Source: a virus
IMG/VR virus record: IMGVR_UViG_3300035698_012127
Span: 1 to 35,277 of that record
Reading direction: 5' to 3' (one strand)
DNA: 35,277 nucleotides
This document shows positions 1,686 to 34,395 of the stretch, piece by piece. Positions within the stretch are counted from its first letter, which is position 1. Every line of letters starts with the position of its first letter. The notes under the pieces are model-generated. The model was given only the letters and a program-made list of their open reading frames with translations, was not told the origin of the DNA and searched no databases. The position numbers and the translations under genes were made by a program.

Positions 1686-2696
1686 TTATTTTACTAACGC
1701 GGCTTGCGTGTTATATACGACTATTTGGCACATATACCCGACAGTCGAGTCATAGACCGCAGAAAACTCTAACGGTTGAACGATTTCTTCTGTTGTATCA
1801 TTTGGTGGTGTTACCCCATTAAAATAGACTTGCGGCAATTTAAGCTCTATTGAATGCAATGTCCCTGAAGTTGAGTTAGCAGTATTTAACAATAAAGAAA
1901 CAGCCATCGCCGTCTCGTTAACGAATAGATTGTATGCGCCTAGATCTTCAAAGGTGAGGTTCATTGTGCCGTTAATCTCTCGTGTATGGAACAAATGATC
2001 TACAATCGTCGATTGCGAGTTAAGCCATCTGTTTTCTACAGGCACATTGTTTATGTTTACGGTTATATCCTTACAAGCGACTTGAGATACAGAGCCTATA
2101 ACAGTACCCATCCGAACAGACGCGTTATTGTAATTAATTGGCTGTAAAGCATCATAAGCGAATGCGGGTGCGGTTGTACGTGGTGCGCCATGGTCAGAAA
2201 ACTTGAAATTCCATGTCTCTTTAACAGGGCTATTAACTGTGGCATTAATAGAATAAGATTCGACTACCCCATTAAACCAATTAAGCGTGTTCGCGACAGA
2301 TGAATCGCATCCAAATGTCGTCATAAACTGTAATCGAGTAGATGTCGGAACATCGTCACCCTCATAAAATGTATGCTTTTTGAATGTGGTGTCCGCAGCC
2401 GTTGGCGCTGAGCTTGTCGTCGAACCACATAAAAGCCACTGATATAGACTTACCCCATTATTCTCGTCTATGTTCCTGGTCAAGGTTCCGTTAGCGGCTA
2501 TGTTGCCTGTAACCCTTCGATGTGGTGCCCTATCGCAGATACCTATCTCCTGTGTTTGGATCTGTTCCTCTTTCGTGCGTGTAAAGCTAAAGCTGTCTAC
2601 GAGTATAAACTCGTTAGCGTCTACACCCGTTTTTTCTGTTGTTTGCGATGATGCAGAATAACCGATAGCACTTTTATAGCCCATTACTATTGTCAT
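1686..2696 (-). CDS. major tail tube protein, copy B
   Basis: A 336-residue paralogue of the downstream tail tube gene. I placed the start at 2696, where AAGGAGGACACTA precedes ATG and the protein begins MTIVMGYK like its twin; an in-frame ATG at 2732 would add 12 residues but lies deep in the upstream gene and has no better site. The two copies diverge mostly in the N-terminal third and agree over the HTREINGTMNLTFE and NDTTEEIVQP regions. Either both build a mixed tube, or one is a specialised tail-tip or decoration variant. The start overlaps the end of the 95-residue gene by 23 nt. Confidence 0.72.
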   Translation of the reverse strand: MTIVMGYKSAIGYSASSQTTEKTGVDANEFILVDSFSFTRTKEEQIQTQEIGICDRAPHRRVTGNIAANGTLTRNIDENNGVSLYQWLLCGSTTSSAPTAADTTFKKHTFYEGDDVPTSTRLQFMTTFGCDSSVANTLNWFNGVVESYSINATVNSPVKETWNFKFSDHGAPRTTAPAFAYDALQPINYNNASVRMGTVIGSVSQVACKDITVNINNVPVENRWLNSQSTIVDHLFHTREINGTMNLTFEDLGAYNLFVNETAMAVSLLLNTANSTSGTLHSIELKLPQVYFNGVTPPNDTTEEIVQPLEFSAVYDSTVGYMCQIVVYNTQAALVK

Positions 2697-2961
2697 TAGT
2701 GTCCTCCTTCTTAATAGGTTTGGTTTCTGCAATTTCTATCTTTTTTATTCGGGTATCATTATCATCAACAACCATTTTCTTTGTTTTCTTAGTTGTGTTC
2801 TTATCGATTACTTTAAATTTTCCTGTAGCTAAAAGTGCCGCTTCTACGTCGAGTGATAATCCGTCTAAAACCTTGCCTGGCACCACGCTAATAGCAGGGC
2901 ACATTTGCTTCCCCAATATCCGTGGATATGTCTCTCTTGAAATACCTGTATATTCAATCAT
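2674..2961 (-). CDS. hypothetical protein with Lys-rich tail
   Basis: A 95-residue protein with TAGGAGGG upstream of its ATG. The first 55 residues look folded (PAISVVPGKVLDGLSLDVEAALL), while the rest is charged and low in hydrophobics, probably disordered. The start overlaps the end of the DUF115-like gene by 8 nt and its end overlaps the start of tail tube copy B, so the three are translated as one unit. I do not recognise a family. Its place just before the tube genes suggests a tail-assembly role, by inference only. Confidence 0.6.
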   Translation of the reverse strand: MIEYTGISRETYPRILGKQMCPAISVVPGKVLDGLSLDVEAALLATGKFKVIDKNTTKKTKKMVVDDNDTRIKKIEIAETKPIKKEDTNDNSNGL

Positions 2962-3835
2962 TGATTTTTACCCTCCTACCATTTTTTAAGATTCCAGCCC
3001 CAGTACAATTATAGAATTTTGCGCCATAACGTTGGCCCGCATAATGGATATACATATCCAGCCAATTAGAAGAGAATTCCATGTTGGTCGATGCGAAGAC
3101 TATTTTATTGTTATTATTAACAGGCCTTAAATGCGCATAAAGCTCTTTTTTCCTGTTTGAATGAGCATCGTCTTCACCGTAATAAGCGTCCCTAGTCCAG
3201 CTATAGTCATAGCCAAAGAAATAGATTTCTTTAGACCCGAATATCTTTACAGCAATAACAGCTAATGAGTTCCCGACATTACTTGCTGCCTCGATAATCT
3301 CATAATAATCTACGAACGGCCCAAAATATTCAGCGGTGCCTATCTTAGAGTCAGGTGTTAATTGGATGTTGTCTTTGTTTAGATACCAAAAGATGCGGTC
3401 TTTACCTGCATGCTTAACCCATAGGTCAGACCAGCCAGGCGAACCATATACATTCGCAATTAATATCGAATGCTTTATCGCTTCAGGATCTACGCCCTCG
3501 ATATATGATGTATCAACAGAGCCATCAGCTATGAGACAGAAATCGACCTTAATGCCTCTATTAGCAAGCGGCCTAAACGCCTTATCTACACAACCCACAA
3601 CAACATCTTCTCGCCCAAAATACTCTGATGTTTTGAACTCTAATACGTTCTTATCAAAAGATGGCCCAAACGCGAACAACATAATCTTTTTCCCGTGGTA
3701 CATATTCAATATATCTTTCAAACTAGTCGTGATTTTATCTTTGTTTGCCTTACAGTTATCAATCCATAAGTCATGCCACTTATCGAACGCTATCTTGCTG
3801 TGTTTCATTATCTCGCCTTTATTCATTTCTGCCAT
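2954..3835 (-). CDS. DUF115 / MptE-like or Maf-like enzyme
   Basis: A 293-residue protein that resembles the DUF115 family (6-hydroxymethylpterin diphosphokinase MptE-like and motility-associated glycosyltransferase-like proteins). The family pattern seen is FAFGPSFDKN near residue 55 (glycine/serine loop after a beta strand), DFCLIADGS (about 97-105), a GNSLAVIAVKIFG helix (about 187-199), then IYFFGYDYSWT (about 203-213). Members transfer a diphosphate or nucleotide-sugar moiety. Here the gene lies inside a tail cluster with a good GGAGAAATATT site, so it may modify a virion protein or a cell-surface sugar. Substrate is unknown. Confidence 0.65.
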   Translation of the reverse strand: MAEMNKGEIMKHSKIAFDKWHDLWIDNCKANKDKITTSLKDILNMYHGKKIMLFAFGPSFDKNVLEFKTSEYFGREDVVVGCVDKAFRPLANRGIKVDFCLIADGSVDTSYIEGVDPEAIKHSILIANVYGSPGWSDLWVKHAGKDRIFWYLNKDNIQLTPDSKIGTAEYFGPFVDYYEIIEAASNVGNSLAVIAVKIFGSKEIYFFGYDYSWTRDAYYGEDDAHSNRKKELYAHLRPVNNNNKIVFASTNMEFSSNWLDMYIHYAGQRYGAKFYNCTGAGILKNGRRVKIND

Positions 3836-16929: not shown

Positions 16930-17349
16930 TTATGCAAACGCAGTGGTATGCGATAACGCGACCCTTTGCCATTCACCTGCTGCATAACATGTATACAGAA
17001 AGTCACCTGCGGTAGGGATGATTATTTGGCCTGGTGTACCCATCCCTGAACTAGTATAGGTTGTTGGCGGTGCCTGGATGCCAATAGAAAAACTACCCGC
17101 ACCTGCAACAGCACCCTTCAATGATAGTGCGCCCGCTATTGATACGGTTGAACTGAACTCCGCTGCGCCAACACAAGATAAAGTGCCAAGCACTGTCACG
17201 GTAGAACTGAACTCGCCCGCACCTGTGCATGTTAATTTAGCTACATTCAACTTTGTCGTTGATACATTCGCTATAGTAACATCATCGTTTGATGTGAAAT
17301 TGGCTGTTCTTAGCCTATTTGGTGTAAAAATCATTTTTGGAGCTGGCAT
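16930..17349 (-). CDS. fibre-like protein, paralogue 1
   Basis: A 139-residue protein, AAAAGGAGGTATTAC before ATG. It begins MPAPKMIFTPNRLRT and continues with repeated GEFSSTV / AAEFSSTVSIAGALS units of about 18-20 residues, as in triple-stranded beta fibres. The end, GTPGQIIIPTAGDFLYTCYA...WQRVAL, matches the small C-terminal domain common in phage fibres. One of three tandem paralogues, so probably a trimeric virion fibre, either homo- or heteromeric. Confidence 0.65.
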   Translation of the reverse strand: MPAPKMIFTPNRLRTANFTSNDDVTIANVSTTKLNVAKLTCTGAGEFSSTVTVLGTLSCVGAAEFSSTVSIAGALSLKGAVAGAGSFSIGIQAPPTTYTSSGMGTPGQIIIPTAGDFLYTCYAAGEWQRVALSHTTAFA

Positions 17350-17369
17350 GTAATACCTCCTTTTCTATT

Positions 17370-17792
17370 TTATATAAAAGCTGTTGCTTGTGTTAAGGCT
17401 ACTCGTGACCAATTTTTAGCTGCATAACAAACATACAAAAAGTCACCTGCGGTAGGGATAATGAGCTGGCCTGGCGTGCCCTTTGATGAGCCAGTATGTG
17501 TATCTGGGTCGGCCTCTAATCCGATAGAGAAACTACCCGCGCCTGTTACGGCACCGCCTAATGTCAATGCGCCCGCTATAGCTACTGTAGAACTGAATTC
17601 TGCTGCGCCGGAACAAGAAAGCGGCCCTTTTATAGATACAGTTGAACTAAATTCAGCTACGCCCGTTACTGTTAAACCTGCTGTATCGACTTTAGTAGAT
17701 GCAGTTAAATTAGCAACTGAATATTGATCAGTAGTCGTAATACCTGCCACTCTTAATTGTTTTGAACTGAACCTTTGTCGTTTAAGTCCCAT
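17370..17792 (-). CDS. fibre-like protein, paralogue 2
   Basis: A 140-residue paralogue of its two neighbours with GGAGGTGAATTAAT before ATG. It shares the repeated AEFSSTVSI / AEFSSTVAIAGALTL units and the tail GTPGQLIIPTAGDFLYVCYA. It differs at the N-terminus (MGLKRQRFSSKQLRVAG), the part that usually attaches to the virion, so the copies may dock at different places or to each other. Confidence 0.65.
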   Translation of the reverse strand: MGLKRQRFSSKQLRVAGITTTDQYSVANLTASTKVDTAGLTVTGVAEFSSTVSIKGPLSCSGAAEFSSTVAIAGALTLGGAVTGAGSFSIGLEADPDTHTGSSKGTPGQLIIPTAGDFLYVCYAAKNWSRVALTQATAFI

Positions 17793-17808
17793 ATTAATTC
17801 ACCTCCAT

Positions 17809-18234
17809 TTATGGTGTAAAAGCTGTTGCTTGTGTTAAAGCTACTCGCGTCCAACTGTTAGCTGCAAAGCCGACATATAAAAAGTCGCCTGCGGTAGGAA
17901 CAATGAGCTGGCCTGCCGTACCCTTTGATGATCCGGTATGTGTATCTGGGTCTGCTTCTAATCCAATAGAGAAATTACCAGAACCAGTCACAGCACCGCC
18001 TAATGTCAATGCGCCCGCTATGGCTACTGTGGAGCTGAACTCCGCTACACCTGCACAAGATAATGCGCCTGTTATTGATACGTTCCCTTTGAATGTCGCC
18101 GCGCCTGTACACGTCAATTTTGCCGCGCTCAATTTCACTGTTGCTGCTATGTTTGTATACAGAAATTCATTTGTCGCTGTATATGCATTGATAGTCGTCA
18201 ACTTTGGACTTAATATTTGTTTTGGTGCTGGCAT
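17809..18234 (-). CDS. fibre-like protein, paralogue 3
   Basis: A 141-residue paralogue, first in transcription order, with GGAGGTAAAT before ATG. It has ATFKGNVSITGALS, AEFSSTVAIAGALTL and the C-terminal GTAGQLIVPTAGDFLYVGFA...WTRVAL. Paralogues 2 and 3 share a long C-terminal stretch (GLEADPDTHTGSSKGT), so they split most recently. Located just after the portal/MuF gene and a 163-nt gap. Confidence 0.65.
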   Translation of the reverse strand: MPAPKQILSPKLTTINAYTATNEFLYTNIAATVKLSAAKLTCTGAATFKGNVSITGALSCAGVAEFSSTVAIAGALTLGGAVTGSGNFSIGLEADPDTHTGSSKGTAGQLIVPTAGDFLYVGFAANSWTRVALTQATAFTP

Positions 18235-18397: not shown

Positions 18398-21124
18398 TCA
18401 CACACTTTGCTTTTTTTTCTTTGGATTAAAGCCGTCATACCACGCATCAGGTTTTTTTAACCCTGACTTCAATGTGCCATCCTCGATGCCTGACTGCATT
18501 TCGTCTTGCTGGAACTTAGTCACAGGCGATAATAGGCTGCGACAGTTATGAACAGCGATACTTTCACAAATATAGCTTTCGTCTTCTTCTACTGCTAAAT
18601 TGTATAATTTATCATCTTTTGTGGTCATGGCTATATTTATTGCACGCATCCTTACACCGCACTCCCATCCTGGGTCTCCTGGGCCTATCTCTATTAAATC
18701 ATCTATTAATTTTAATTCCCCTACAGGTATCCATCCGCGTTCAGTTAATACAGGATGTTCTTCTGTTATTTTCAATATATGACCGCAATCCGTCCTAATG
18801 ATGAAATAATATTTATCTTCAAATTTATCCATCACGTCATAAACTCTACGGAATCGCTGCTTATGTGTTTGCACCATATCCCCTATTTTTATGTTTTCAA
18901 TAGGGACTTCGCCTTTATCGGTTCTTATTAGGCTGCCTTTTAAAACAGAATTAAAATGCCGTGGTGGGGTTATTGTTGATAGTGCAGCCCCATCTTCTGC
19001 GGATACGATGGTGCCATGTAGCTCATTACATATATCGGATGTCCTATTATCAAGCGTTGCTATGAATTCCATGTGGGTTACTATCCCTGTTTTAATAGCG
19101 TCTTTCATTCCGACTAACCTAGCCTCGTTATAAAACGTGTTTGCGTTTGTTCTAACAATATTATCTAATCTATATGGCTCAATGACCTCGGTAGGAATAA
19201 CCGCACCTTCTACATACGGACTAAATACCTGTTCGATATCACTTATGATCTCTTTCGTTGTGTTGCCGTTCCTGAAACCCTCAGTTAAAACGATACCAGT
19301 ATCACGCTCTATCCGTGATTTTAGATCGCCCGCTAACTGAAACGCTTTAGTTTCACCAAACGCGACTAAAAAGCTCTTCGCTTCTTTAGCGCCCATATCA
19401 CCCGTCAAATAAAAGCTTTTAGGGGTTTGCGACTTTATCTCTTGCTTAACGTCACGCAGCCCCATATTAGACATAGATGCGAATAGGCGTTCATATTGGG
19501 TTTGGATATTACCTATATAAGGCACCTTGATATTATTAATATAATCTAAATCATGGTTCTCTAATGGAAGATCCTTTTTTAGGTCATCGATTATAGATTT
19601 CTCTATCTTCTTTATTAACGCGGATATCCGGCCTGTAGCTATCGCGGTCTTCTCATTGAATTCTGTGTCTATCCGTTGGAAGTTAATATTCTTTTCAATG
19701 AAATGTAGGTCTTGCCCTTTGTATTGTTCGGCGAACTGTTCCGCCTGTTTCTTTTCGTCTTCTAGTTCAGGGTTCAACTTCTTTTCTGGTTCCGGTGCAT
19801 CTTTTTCTGGGTTAGGTTTAACAGGTGCCTCTTGGTTAGGCGCAGAACCTTCAGGCGCTTCTTCTTTTGGCTGTAATATAGTGTCTTCTTCTGTAGGTGA
19901 GAACCCTAAAACTTCTCTTAAATGGTTCACGTCTTCTAGTGTTGGCAGAAACGATTTCGTTTTTAGTAGGTCAGTAAATAGTTTGGCTTTTTCTAGTGCG
20001 TCTTCTTCAACTAAATCTTTGAACTTAAATTTAGGGTATTTTTCCACGTTCGGGAAGTTGATATCGACTAACCGTTTAATGACTTGGCTATTAACAAGCT
20101 CTTCTATCGTTTTTCTGTAGCTGTTAAGTGTAAGCTCAAGTATATCGCCTTGCTGTTTCCCTAACGCGAAACTCCCACCAGATGAGCCTGCTGAGGTGAA
20201 GCCCATTAGGGTCGGTATCCGTAACGCACGCGATATCTGTTCATCTAATTTATCTATAGCTAACTTAAACGCGTCTGCACTAACTTTCCCTGATTTGGGT
20301 TCCATTAACTCAATAGTCACATCTTCAGGGATAATAGCTACTGCGGCGGCCTGTAGGTCTTTTAACACGGCCTGTAAATCATCTGTTTGGTTACGTTCTA
20401 TCTCAGGGTTATATCTGCCAATCAGTAATGGGAACCCATATCGCTCTAAGAACATAGCCCAGTATTTCTGGATTTGAGTCTTAATGAACCACGGGTTATA
20501 ACAAGCCCTGAGATCTGGCGTGCCATAATAGTTGCCTTCCCTTGGGTTCCAAGACCACACAACAAACTTTTTTATATTTAATAATATAGTGCCTCTATCG
20601 GTGAACTGCTTAAATCCGTCAGGTTTTAGAACGCCATATTCATCTGTCTCAAATTGGATGGAATCGTTAGGGATCTGTTGGAACCGATCTATGACTATTT
20701 GGTTTGTGGCTTCTTTGAATTTATATATTGTTTCATTTACTGAGAACCCGAACTCCATCGCTAACGAGAAATCCTTCATATAGGAGACGAAATCACTATC
20801 TAAGTCGTCTCGTAACGCAGAGTCAACGAACTCGGCTATCTCTTTAGCTTCTTCTATTGGATTGCCTTCACCATCAACAGGCAAATCTATATCCCAGCCT
20901 GTAGAGAAGATAAGCATTTTACGGAGGTCAACTAACGCTTTAACCTGATAATCATTGAACATCGAATCGTATTCTTTAAACGAGCCTTTCTTTACGATTA
21001 CGTCATCAGGGTTCCAAGGTGCCCATTGGGATTGGATACTATATGATGTTTTTACAACGGCTTGCGGTTCCGAAACGTTTTTAGGGGGTCTTATAGTCTT
21101 AGGTTTATTTTCTTTTTCAGCCAT
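18398..21124 (-). CDS. portal (DUF935-like) fused to MuF-like head protein, with intein
   Basis: A 908-residue open frame with AAAGGAC before ATG. Residues 25-430 resemble Mu gp29-like portals (FSTGWDIDLP, QQIPNDSIQFE, WSWNPREGNYYGTPDLR, RALRIPTLMG, SSGGSFALG). After a Pro/Glu linker (430-460), residues 465-880 form a MuF-like minor head domain. In most Mu-like phages these are two genes. The MuF motif PPRHFN/CRSLLSPV is split by a 135-residue intein (726-860), leaving a 773-residue spliced product. The portal is the DNA channel; MuF proteins act with it in head assembly. The terminase gene ends 11 nt upstream. Confidence 0.85.
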   Translation of the reverse strand: MAEKENKPKTIRPPKNVSEPQAVVKTSYSIQSQWAPWNPDDVIVKKGSFKEYDSMFNDYQVKALVDLRKMLIFSTGWDIDLPVDGEGNPIEEAKEIAEFVDSALRDDLDSDFVSYMKDFSLAMEFGFSVNETIYKFKEATNQIVIDRFQQIPNDSIQFETDEYGVLKPDGFKQFTDRGTILLNIKKFVVWSWNPREGNYYGTPDLRACYNPWFIKTQIQKYWAMFLERYGFPLLIGRYNPEIERNQTDDLQAVLKDLQAAAVAIIPEDVTIELMEPKSGKVSADAFKLAIDKLDEQISRALRIPTLMGFTSAGSSGGSFALGKQQGDILELTLNSYRKTIEELVNSQVIKRLVDINFPNVEKYPKFKFKDLVEEDALEKAKLFTDLLKTKSFLPTLEDVNHLREVLGFSPTEEDTILQPKEEAPEGSAPNQEAPVKPNPEKDAPEPEKKLNPELEDEKKQAEQFAEQYKGQDLHFIEKNINFQRIDTEFNEKTAIATGRISALIKKIEKSIIDDLKKDLPLENHDLDYINNIKVPYIGNIQTQYERLFASMSNMGLRDVKQEIKSQTPKSFYLTGDMGAKEAKSFLVAFGETKAFQLAGDLKSRIERDTGIVLTEGFRNGNTTKEIISDIEQVFSPYVEGAVIPTEVIEPYRLDNIVRTNANTFYNEARLVGMKDAIKTGIVTHMEFIATLDNRTSDICNELHGTIVSAEDGAALSTITPPRHFNSVLKGSLIRTDKGEVPIENIKIGDMVQTHKQRFRRVYDVMDKFEDKYYFIIRTDCGHILKITEEHPVLTERGWIPVGELKLIDDLIEIGPGDPGWECGVRMRAINIAMTTKDDKLYNLAVEEDESYICESIAVHNCRSLLSPVTKFQQDEMQSGIEDGTLKSGLKKPDAWYDGFNPKKKKQSV
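18545..18949 (-). other. mini-intein (135 residues) in the MuF domain
   Basis: Block A: SVLKGSLIRT...VPIENIKIGD, starting with Ser instead of the usual Cys. Block B: GHILKITEEHPVLTERGW, with the TxxH (Thr62, His65). Block F and G: LYNLAVEEDESYICES then IAVHN, with the His-Asn end and Cys as the +1 residue. There is no room for a homing endonuclease between the blocks. Removing it restores PPRHFNCRS, the core MuF motif. All residues expected for splicing are present. Confidence 0.9.
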
Positions 21125-32235: not shown

Positions 32236-34395
32236 ATGGACTACAAACAATTCATAAAAAGCAAAGAAACAAAGAAGATCGAATCTGGGTTCGATATAGA
32301 TGAAGATCAACTCAATAAAAATCTGTTCGGTTTCCAGAAGTACCTAGTACGCAGTGCGTTATCACAAGGTAAGTATGCTATATTCGCGGATTGCGGGCTG
32401 GGCAAAACCATATGCCAGCTAGAATGGGCATACCAAATAACTAAAAAAGAGAATAAAAAGGTACTTATCCTCGCGCCTTTGGCTGTAGTTAAACAAACAA
32501 AGAACGAAGCTTTGAAGTTTGATATAGATATATCTATGATAGATATAACAAACTATGAACAGATAAACAATATAGATCTATCACAATACGTAGGTGTATG
32601 TCTAGACGAATCTAGCTGCCTAAAAAACTTCACGGGTGCTATGCGTAACGCATTGATAGATGTATTTTCAAAGTTAAAATATAAGCTTGCTTGCACTGCT
32701 ACCCCTAGCCCAAATGATATAGATGAGTTAGGTAACCATTCCGAGTTCTTAAACGTTATGGGCCATTCAGAGATGAGATCGATGTTTTTTGTTAATGATA
32801 TGCAAACCACCCAAAAATGGCGGTTAAAAAAGCACGCAGTATCTACCTTTTGGCAATGGGTTAGTAGCTGGTCTATTATGATAAACAAGCCATCCGATAT
32901 TGGATACCCTGACACTGGATACATATTACCTAAACTAGACATAAAAGAGTTAAAAGTAATCACCCCTAAAAAAGATGATGGTAGGTTGTTTAACGATAAC
33001 GCCGTTAATGCCACCGATTATAACCAGGCATTAAGGGATACTATGATCCAGCGTGTCGATGCTATAAAGGACATAGTTAATAACAGTGATGATATGTTCC
33101 TTATCTGGGTAAAGCAAAATGTTGAAGCAGACGCTATGAGAAAGGCTATCCCCGGATCGGTTGAGGTTCGTGGCGATGAATCGCAAGAATCAAAAGAGGA
33201 TAAGCTTATAGGATTTTCTAAAAGCGAGTTTAGGGTTCTAATAACGAAATCGAAGATAGCTCAGTTTGGGCTGAATTTCCAGAATTGTCATAACCAAATA
33301 TTCTTAAGTCCTGATTTCAGTTTTGAAAGCACATATCAATCGATAAGACGGTCGTGGCGGTTCGGCCAAAAGAAAGATGTAAATATAACACTAGTTATAC
33401 CTGACACTATGGAGAATATAGGGACAATAATAGATAGGAAACAAAAAGAATTTGTTAATATGCAAAAAATGATGATCAAATATTTCAAGAAAGGCGAGCA
33501 TATAAAGATGAAAACAATAAAGAAGAGTGAAGAAATAAAAGAAAAGACACATCATATTATTAATGGTGACTGTATAGATGAAATAAAAAGGATACCCGAC
33601 GATTCTGTAGGTCTTAGCATATTCTCGCCGCCTTTTTCAGATTTGTATACATATTCCGATAATGTAGAGGATATGGGGAATAGCGCAAACCACGCGCAAT
33701 TCATAGCCCATTTTAGTTTTCTTGTTAAGGAACTGAAGAGGGTCATAATGCCAGGCAGAAATATATGTGTGCATTGTATTGATATCCCATCAAAGAAAGG
33801 TGTTGATGGCTATATCGGCTTAAAAGACTTTTCAGGTGATTTAATAAAACTGTTTCAGGATTGCGGGCTCATCTATCATACACGTGTAACCATTTGGAAA
33901 GATCCTGTAGTCCAGATGCAACGGACAAAGGCTTTAGGGCTATTACATCGACAAGTAAAAAAGGATAGTGTGATGAGCAGGGTAGGTATCCCTGATTATA
34001 TGCTTGTGTTTCGAGACCCTAGAGAGAACATAGAACCAGTAACACACGGCGCAGATTTGCCAGTAGATCTATGGCAGAAATATGCAAGCCCGATATGGTA
34101 CGATATCAACCAATCAAATACATTACAGTATAGGGCCGCCAGGGAAGGCTCAGATGAGAAGCATGTGTGTCCCTTACAGTTAGATACCATAAAAAGATGT
34201 GTGCATTTATGGAGTAATAAAGGTGATACGGTATTTACACCGTTTATGGGCATTGGATCTGAAATATATCAGGCTATAAAGATGGATCGGTATGGTATAG
34301 GTATAGAACTAAAAGAAAGCTATTTCGAAGTAGCTAAAAACAACTGTATCCAAGCAGACTCTGAAAAACAGCAGATAAGTTTACTTGATATGTAG
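32236..34395 (+). CDS. SNF2-like helicase fused to DNA methyltransferase
   Basis: A 719-residue protein. Helicase part (about 1-420): FADCGLGKTI (50-59, motif I), LDESS (123-127, motif II), TATPSPND (154-161, motif III), IRRSWRFGQKKD (370-381, motif VI). Methyltransferase part (about 438-710): NGDCIDEI, SPPF (464-467, catalytic motif IV) and, near the end, FTPFMGIGSE (668-676, SAM-binding motif I). IV before I is the beta-class order, and SPPF favours N4-cytosine methylation. It may mark phage DNA against restriction while tracking along it. There is no recognisable nuclease domain. Confidence 0.85.
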   Translation: MDYKQFIKSKETKKIESGFDIDEDQLNKNLFGFQKYLVRSALSQGKYAIFADCGLGKTICQLEWAYQITKKENKKVLILAPLAVVKQTKNEALKFDIDISMIDITNYEQINNIDLSQYVGVCLDESSCLKNFTGAMRNALIDVFSKLKYKLACTATPSPNDIDELGNHSEFLNVMGHSEMRSMFFVNDMQTTQKWRLKKHAVSTFWQWVSSWSIMINKPSDIGYPDTGYILPKLDIKELKVITPKKDDGRLFNDNAVNATDYNQALRDTMIQRVDAIKDIVNNSDDMFLIWVKQNVEADAMRKAIPGSVEVRGDESQESKEDKLIGFSKSEFRVLITKSKIAQFGLNFQNCHNQIFLSPDFSFESTYQSIRRSWRFGQKKDVNITLVIPDTMENIGTIIDRKQKEFVNMQKMMIKYFKKGEHIKMKTIKKSEEIKEKTHHIINGDCIDEIKRIPDDSVGLSIFSPPFSDLYTYSDNVEDMGNSANHAQFIAHFSFLVKELKRVIMPGRNICVHCIDIPSKKGVDGYIGLKDFSGDLIKLFQDCGLIYHTRVTIWKDPVVQMQRTKALGLLHRQVKKDSVMSRVGIPDYMLVFRDPRENIEPVTHGADLPVDLWQKYASPIWYDINQSNTLQYRAAREGSDEKHVCPLQLDTIKRCVHLWSNKGDTVFTPFMGIGSEIYQAIKMDRYGIGIELKESYFEVAKNNCIQADSEKQQISLLDM

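What the first reader, a model, noticed from the sequence alone, without database searches (positions are those of the whole stretch)
18545..18949. Mini-intein splitting the core motif of the MuF domain
A 135-residue intein with Ser at position 1, TxxH, His-Asn end and Cys +1, cut between PPRHFN and CRSLLSPV. The MuF core is functional only after splicing, so splicing could time head assembly. No endonuclease is present. Ser1 paired with Cys+1 is a less common combination.
Basis: partly seen in the sequence, partly recalled or inferred. Interest (0 to 1): 0.7.

Follow-up and report, generated by a model that had tools for sequence, protein, structure and literature searches.

The report
Mini-intein in a phage head-assembly gene
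A phage head-assembly gene carries a small self-splicing protein insert (an intein) at a known insertion spot; its closest relatives are unusual because most lack the usual first splicing residue and carry their DNA-cutting homing gene on the opposite DNA strand.

Summary
A 135-residue intein (18545-18949, minus) interrupts a 908-aa portal + MuF protein exactly between PPRHFN and CRSLLSPV, leaving a 773-aa product. The site is empty in 66 of 73 scorable relatives. No endonuclease of the family's type was found in the window. MuF inteins, endonuclease-less ones included, are already known (Methylococcus Mu-like prophage, 2004), and that paper already proposed that splicing might regulate head assembly; nothing here supports that idea specifically. 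New is the lineage. Of 76 inteins at this site, 52 start with Cys and 24 do not (19 Ala, 4 Ser including the window, 1 Gln). The 24 are compatible with one clade, keep TxxH, a terminal Asn and Cys+1, and so probably splice by direct attack of Cys+1. Where a homing endonuclease is detected in that clade (20 of 20) it is antisense. In contiguous members it is in codon register with the intein frame and lacks every codon that would be a stop there; in split members it uses them. The window's intein is a contiguous, endonuclease-free member nested among split ones. Splicing itself is inferred, not shown.

The parts
18398..21124 (-). Portal-MuF fusion gene carrying the intein (908 aa precursor; 773 aa if spliced)
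18950..21124 (-). N-extein: portal (PF06074) plus most of the MuF domain, ending ...TPPRHFN
   Evidence: empty-site relatives
18545..18949 (-). Mini-intein, 135 aa, SVLKGSLIRT...ESIAVHN
18947..18949 (-). Intein residue 1, Ser (TCT); one base from Ala GCT (most of the lineage) and from Cys TGT
18911..18949 (-). Block A, SVLKGSLIRTDKG
18731..18778 (-). Block B with TEEHPVL (TxxH, T62 and H65 of the intein)
18635..18691 (-). Linker where kin carry the split point and the antisense endonuclease; here short and endonuclease-free
18557..18610 (-). Block F, KLYNLAVEEDESYICESI (Asn at the F:4 position, residue 117)
18545..18556 (-). Block G end AVHN, penultimate His134 and terminal Asn135
18542..18544 (-). 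Cys+1, first C-extein residue and also an invariant MuF residue (PPxHFNCRS)
18401..18544 (-). C-extein, 48 aa, CRSLLSPVTKF...

Best explanation
It is a contiguous, endonuclease-free mini-intein sitting at a recurrent insertion site, the H-x-N|C-R motif of phage MuF proteins. The precursor folds its HINT domain, the N-terminal bond is activated by the TxxH motif, the N-extein is passed to Cys+1, Asn135 cyclises, and the two parts join scarlessly to the 773-aa portal-MuF protein (inferred from motifs, fold and kin; about 0.9). [quoted passage not shown] Because position 1 is free to lose its nucleophile in that lineage, Cys+1 probably attacks the N-terminal bond directly, as in class 2 inteins; whether Ser1 contributes in this copy is open (about 0.5). 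The window's copy lost or never had the endonuclease. Its nesting among split inteins suggests loss and re-joining, but the tree support is modest. No regulatory role is needed to explain it.
For: Exact site and empty sites. Homologous inteins at the same junction in cultured phages of Vibrio, Salmonella, E. coli and Gordonia and in many viral contigs. HINT fold. Closest kin L006, L016, L019, L034, L037 are in a 98% SH-aLRT clade with the window; all are split, with an EDxHD-like endonuclease ORF between the halves on the other strand (profile hit to I-Bth0305I 3r3p, E 5e-8). Position 1 over 76 inteins is Cys 52, Ala 19, Ser 4, Gln 1. Non-Cys members as one clade are not rejected (AU p 0.79; the held-together tree had the higher likelihood). 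TxxH (SxxH in L034), the terminal Asn and Cys+1 are kept wherever the relevant part of the sequence is present. Intein identity is far above extein identity.
Against: No splicing was observed. Cys+1 is an invariant MuF residue anyway, so its conservation is not independent evidence for splicing. Ser1 is a legitimate class 1 nucleophile, so the window itself could be ordinary class 1. Pfam Intein_splicing is below its cut-off. Branch supports inside the window's group are only 80-90%, so derivation from a split ancestor is not established.
Confidence: 0.85

Rival explanations
1. Ordinary class 1 mini-intein: Ser1 makes the first ester, then transfer to Cys+1. Ala1 kin are simply a different branch. 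(A rival on the mechanism only, not on its being an intein.)
For: Ser1, TxxH, HN and Cys+1 are all canonical. Ser1 also recurs in L034, L283 and L294.
Against: The nearest kin have Ala or Gln at position 1 with otherwise intact active sites, and Ser and Ala interchange several times on the tree, as expected if the side chain is not essential.
Confidence: 0.45
2. Bacterial intein-like (BIL) or Hint autoprocessing domain that mainly cleaves rather than splices.
For: Best PDB sequence hit is a BIL domain (2lwy); PT-HINT and Hint_2 are the best Pfam hits.
Against: A +1 nucleophile is present, and the insert splits a motif that is intact in relatives; cleavage would cut off the conserved 48-aa C-terminus carrying CRS. 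The same site holds full-length inteins with endonucleases.
Confidence: 0.06
3. Splicing is a conditional switch that times head assembly (first reader; also proposed in 2004 for the Methylococcus MuF intein).
For: The insert interrupts the MuF core motif, so the precursor is probably inactive (inference). The Cys/Ser chemistry could be redox or temperature sensitive in principle (general knowledge of inteins). No tool result supports it specifically.
Against: 66 of 80 related proteins lack any intein there. Horizontal-transfer signature. No sign of a sensor or of conservation with a particular phage lifestyle.
Confidence: 0.05

Closest known systems
MuF (gp30) intein of the Mu-like prophage of Methylococcus capsulatus (PMC517821, 2004)
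   Same: Intein in the Mu F head protein, no recognisable endonuclease, same suggestion that splicing could regulate head morphogenesis
   Different: Described as most similar to archaeal IF-2 inteins; its exact site and first residue were not compared here
Intein of the head morphogenesis protein of Escherichia phage Snoke and related Salmonella phages (MK931441, PQ488694)
   Same: Same junction, HPN|intein|CRS, already annotated as intein-containing in Snoke
   Different: Cys1, 272 aa, with an antisense ORF spanning the whole intein that is not annotated; the window has Ser1 and no endonuclease
Class 2 inteins (Methanococcus jannaschii KlbA and orthologs; PMC4031507)
   Same: Cys+1; non-nucleophile Ala1 in 19 kin; Ser at the penultimate position plus Ala1 in four kin rows (L047, L053, L054, L067)
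   Different: The window has Ser1 and His134; no sequence match to KlbA was returned; phage MuF host rather than archaeal KlbA
Fractured genes with split inteins and an EDxHD-type homing endonuclease between the halves (Dassa et al. 2009; paper not held, known from memory and citation)
   Same: Kin L006, L016, L019, L034, L037, L049, L112: split intein with EDxHD-like endonuclease between or overlapping the halves
   Different: MuF host gene, Ala1/Ser1 halves; the window's copy is contiguous and endonuclease-free
Bacterial intein-like (BIL) domains (PDB 2lwy)
   Same: Best PDB sequence hit, HINT fold
   Different: BIL domains lack the +1 nucleophile; here Cys+1 is present and the insert sits in a conserved motif of a structural protein

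Membership tests
Intein (protein-splicing element) | In-frame insert whose removal restores a conserved host protein | tested here: met
   66 of 80 relatives have the uninterrupted PPxHxxCRS-type motif at the exact junction
Intein (protein-splicing element) | HINT fold with blocks A, B (TxxH), F, G (HN) and a +1 nucleophile | tested here: met
Intein (protein-splicing element) | Ligated exteins produced | not testable with these tools
   needs expression
Class 1 intein | Nucleophile (Cys, Ser or Thr) at position 1 used in step 1 | tested here: inconclusive
   Ser1 is present, but kin with Ala1 or Gln1 keep all else; use of Ser1 cannot be tested
Class 2 intein (KlbA type) | Ala1, penultimate Ser, Cys+1 | tested here: not met
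   Window has Ser1 and His134; only Cys+1 is met. It may still work like class 2 (definition)
Class 3 intein | Trp-Cys-Thr motif (Trp B:12, Cys F:4) | tested here: not met
   B:12 position is Val67, F:4 position is Asn117 (read from the sequence)
Bacterial intein-like domain | No +1 nucleophile | tested here: not met
   Cys+1
Split intein with EDxHD homing endonuclease (fractured gene) | Two genes for the halves and an endonuclease gene | tested here: not met
   Window intein is one frame without endonuclease; its nearest kin do meet it
Phage Mu F-like (MuF) protein | MuF profile match and H-x-N-C-R motif after removal of the insert | tested here: met
   PF04233 E 3e-10, motif split by the intein

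The most novel reading that the evidence does not exclude
The window's intein belongs to a phage MuF intein lineage, outside the KlbA family, that splices without any N-terminal nucleophile (Ala, Ser or Gln at position 1) and whose homing endonuclease is encoded on the opposite strand, in codon register with the intein. Contiguous members survive because the endonuclease gene avoids TTA, CTA and TCA (which read as stops on the other strand); when it stops avoiding them the intein becomes split. This would be a direct route from a contiguous intein to a fractured gene, and the window would be the end state after endonuclease loss.
Probability: 0.5. Interest if true: 0.82.

Novelty: new variant of a known kind. 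Interest (0 to 1): 0.6.

Why it matters
A 2014 review states that all class 2 inteins then known were KlbA orthologs (PMC4031507). A second, phage-borne lineage with Ala, Ser and Gln at position 1 in otherwise intact active sites would show that direct attack by Cys+1 is a stable strategy, and the window's Ser1 copy is a ready test of whether a Ser side chain is used or bypassed. The antisense, in-register endonuclease in its kin gives a concrete, testable model for how split inteins arise, and adds a clear case of two proteins read from both strands of the same DNA. Small contiguous members (window 135 aa, L041 133 aa) are practical for structural work and protein engineering.

Tried and rejected
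Class 3 was considered and rejected (no Trp B:12 or Cys F:4). BIL was considered and rejected as the main reading because Cys+1 is present. A free-standing endonuclease in the window was looked for with a profile of five kin endonucleases in six frames, none found; other endonuclease families were checked only through the Pfam and PHROGs scans of selected window proteins. An acidic residue before the block B His looked specific for non-Cys1 inteins (22 of 23) but is also common in Cys1 ones, so it is not diagnostic. The first genome-contig scan found nothing; the second found cellular inteins, and inspection of their junctions showed none at the MuF site. The plasmid search gave only distant portal hits. 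Shuffling of synonymous codons alone did not always separate real antisense ORFs from chance (e.g. L038 34 of 300, L021 26 of 300 as long), so the antisense claim rests on homology, conservation and codon avoidance, not on ORF length. For Gordonia L021 the codon-avoidance test is not significant (p 0.28). The Dassa 2009 and Taylor 2011 papers are not held. Searches for reports of antisense endonucleases in inteins found none in the held library; that is not proof of absence.

Full report
What is there. The minus-strand ORF 18398-21124 encodes 908 aa. Residues 51-389 match the Mu-type portal family (PF06074, E 4e-61) and residues 612-725 the MuF family (PF04233, E 3e-10); the MuF match stops exactly where the proposed insert begins. 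PHROGs agree: portal and head morphogenesis. The insert is residues 726-860, 135 aa, window 18545-18949, Ser first, Asn last, Cys next; removing it gives 773 aa.

Is it an intein? By sequence it matches Hint_2 and PT-HINT above their Pfam cut-offs and Intein_splicing below its cut-off, and a BIL domain and the Mtu RecA intein in the PDB. An AlphaFold2 model built with relatives (mean pLDDT 73; weak linker at model residues 100-107) matches gp41-1, Ssp DnaB, Npu DnaB and other inteins (Foldseek E 8e-8 and weaker). The active-site set is Ser1, T62-x-x-H65, Asn117 at the F:4 place, H134-N135 and Cys+1. Splicing is inferred from this, not shown.

Empty sites. A portal-profile scan of viral contigs returned 80 relatives. 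66 have an uninterrupted motif (for example L116, PPLHFNCRSLLIPITKY), 7 have an intein at exactly that junction, 7 could not be scored. Bacillus phage Riggi (TPPNHFNCRSQ) and Geobacillus phage GBK1 (TPPNHFQCRST) are cultured examples without the intein. So the borders are right, Cys+1 is the native MuF cysteine, and the intein is an optional element.

Same site elsewhere. Inteins at this junction occur in cultured phages: Vibrio 1.266.O, 1.265.O, 1.113.A and 1.197.A; Salmonella SaI_NFG_5577; E. coli phage Snoke, where the depositors annotated it; and, at a V-I-N|C junction, Gordonia Barsten and Lennon. [quoted passage not shown] So neither the MuF mini-intein nor the timing idea is new.

The lineage. 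After removing near-copies, 76 inteins at the site were tabulated. Residue 1 is Cys in 52, Ala in 19, Ser in 4 (window, L034, L283, L294) and Gln in 1 (L282). The contiguous Ala1 intein of L041 is only 133 aa. The window lies with L006, L016, L019, L034 and L037 in a group with 98% SH-aLRT support. On a tree made without residue 1, the 24 non-Cys1 rows are not rejected as one clade; the tree that holds them together even had a higher likelihood (AU p 0.79). The non-Cys1 members keep TxxH (SxxH in L034), a terminal Asn (His-Asn, or Ser-Asn in the L047/L053/L054/L067 group) and Cys+1 wherever that part of the sequence is present. Ser and Ala interchange on the tree, and their codons are one base apart (TCT/GCT). 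This fits splicing that does not depend on residue 1, i.e. direct attack by Cys+1 as in class 2 inteins, which a 2014 review knew only from KlbA orthologs (PMC4031507). It is an inference, and the window's own Ser1 could still be used.

Split kin and endonuclease. In L006, L016, L019, L034, L037, L112 and L049 the MuF gene stops after the N-terminal half of the intein and a second short gene starts with the C-terminal half and CRS or CKS; a long ORF lies on the opposite strand between or over the halves. L171 shows the same N-half and antisense ORF, but its C-half was not found within the short stretch that remains of the contig. A profile of five of these ORFs matches I-Bth0305I, an EDxHD homing endonuclease (PDB 3r3p, E 5e-8). 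In contiguous non-Cys1 inteins the apparent ~200-residue insert is the sense reading of an antisense ORF of the same family (hmmsearch E 4e-38 to 6e-18). In 18 of 18 pairs compared, the antisense protein is more conserved than the sense insert (e.g. L020/L023 52% against 39%; L047/L053 51% against 33%; in three distant pairs the sense insert gave no or only a trivial alignment). In 14 of 14 contiguous cases the antisense gene is in codon register with the intein and has no TTA, CTA or TCA codon, the three whose complements are stops in the intein frame, although other genes of the same loci use them for about 5-40% of Leu and Ser codons (p from 5e-9 to 0.04 in eleven of the twelve loci with a background estimate; 0.28 in Gordonia L021; two could not be tested). 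In the eight non-contiguous loci tested they are used 7-25 times. Zero use follows from the sense frame being open; the p values say the openness is not chance. All 20 non-Cys1 inteins with a detected endonuclease have it antisense; Cys1 ones have it sense in 26 and antisense in 5. The profile used for this count included antisense members, a possible detection bias.

Where the window fits. It has no trace of the endonuclease in any frame, and its linker between the two halves is short. Its nearest neighbours are split, so loss of the endonuclease with re-joining is the simplest reading, but support values there are 80-90% and repeated splitting is not excluded. Intein identity to these kin is 50-58%, while the N-exteins share only 22-32%, which points to horizontal movement of the element between distant phages.

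Verdict. The interpretation as a splicing mini-intein is very likely right; the timing role is unsupported and not new. The added value is that the element is the small, contiguous, Ser1 member of a MuF intein lineage with an apparently dispensable first residue and cross-strand homing endonucleases.

Noticed in passing
L020:2600-3622 (+) with antisense ORF 2753-3529; also L023, L039, L043, L044, L047, L053, L054, L038, L022, L024, L294: Homing endonuclease encoded antisense and codon-in-register within contiguous MuF inteins, with complete avoidance of TTA/CTA/TCA; not annotated in the deposited phage records that were read.
   Followed up: yes
L021 antisense ORF 2591-3268 (Gordonia phage Barsten): Antisense ORF across the intein looks LAGLIDADG-like (YVAAFIDGEGTVTV), a different endonuclease type with the same cross-strand arrangement.
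   Followed up: partly
L115:7017-7853: Ala1 MuF intein whose N-half is fused in frame to an HNH-type endonuclease, with the C-half in an overlapping second ORF.
   Followed up: no
L055, L076, L080, L100, L107, L108: Inteins inside P-loop-like motifs (probably large terminases) that appear to begin with Pro and end before Ser, Thr or Cys, another possible group without an N-terminal nucleophile.
   Followed up: no
L098 (junction DDRL|AVANRTPV ... VHN|CPIC): Ala1 intein at a different, upstream MuF site (the DDRxCxxC motif).
   Followed up: no
window 16930-18234 (-): Three consecutive paralogous 139-141 aa proteins with repeats such as AEFSSTV..AGAL just downstream of the portal-MuF gene, possibly fibre or decoration modules.
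   Followed up: no
window 32236-34395 (+): Helicase C-terminal domain and N6/N4 DNA methylase domain in one 719-aa protein.
   Followed up: no
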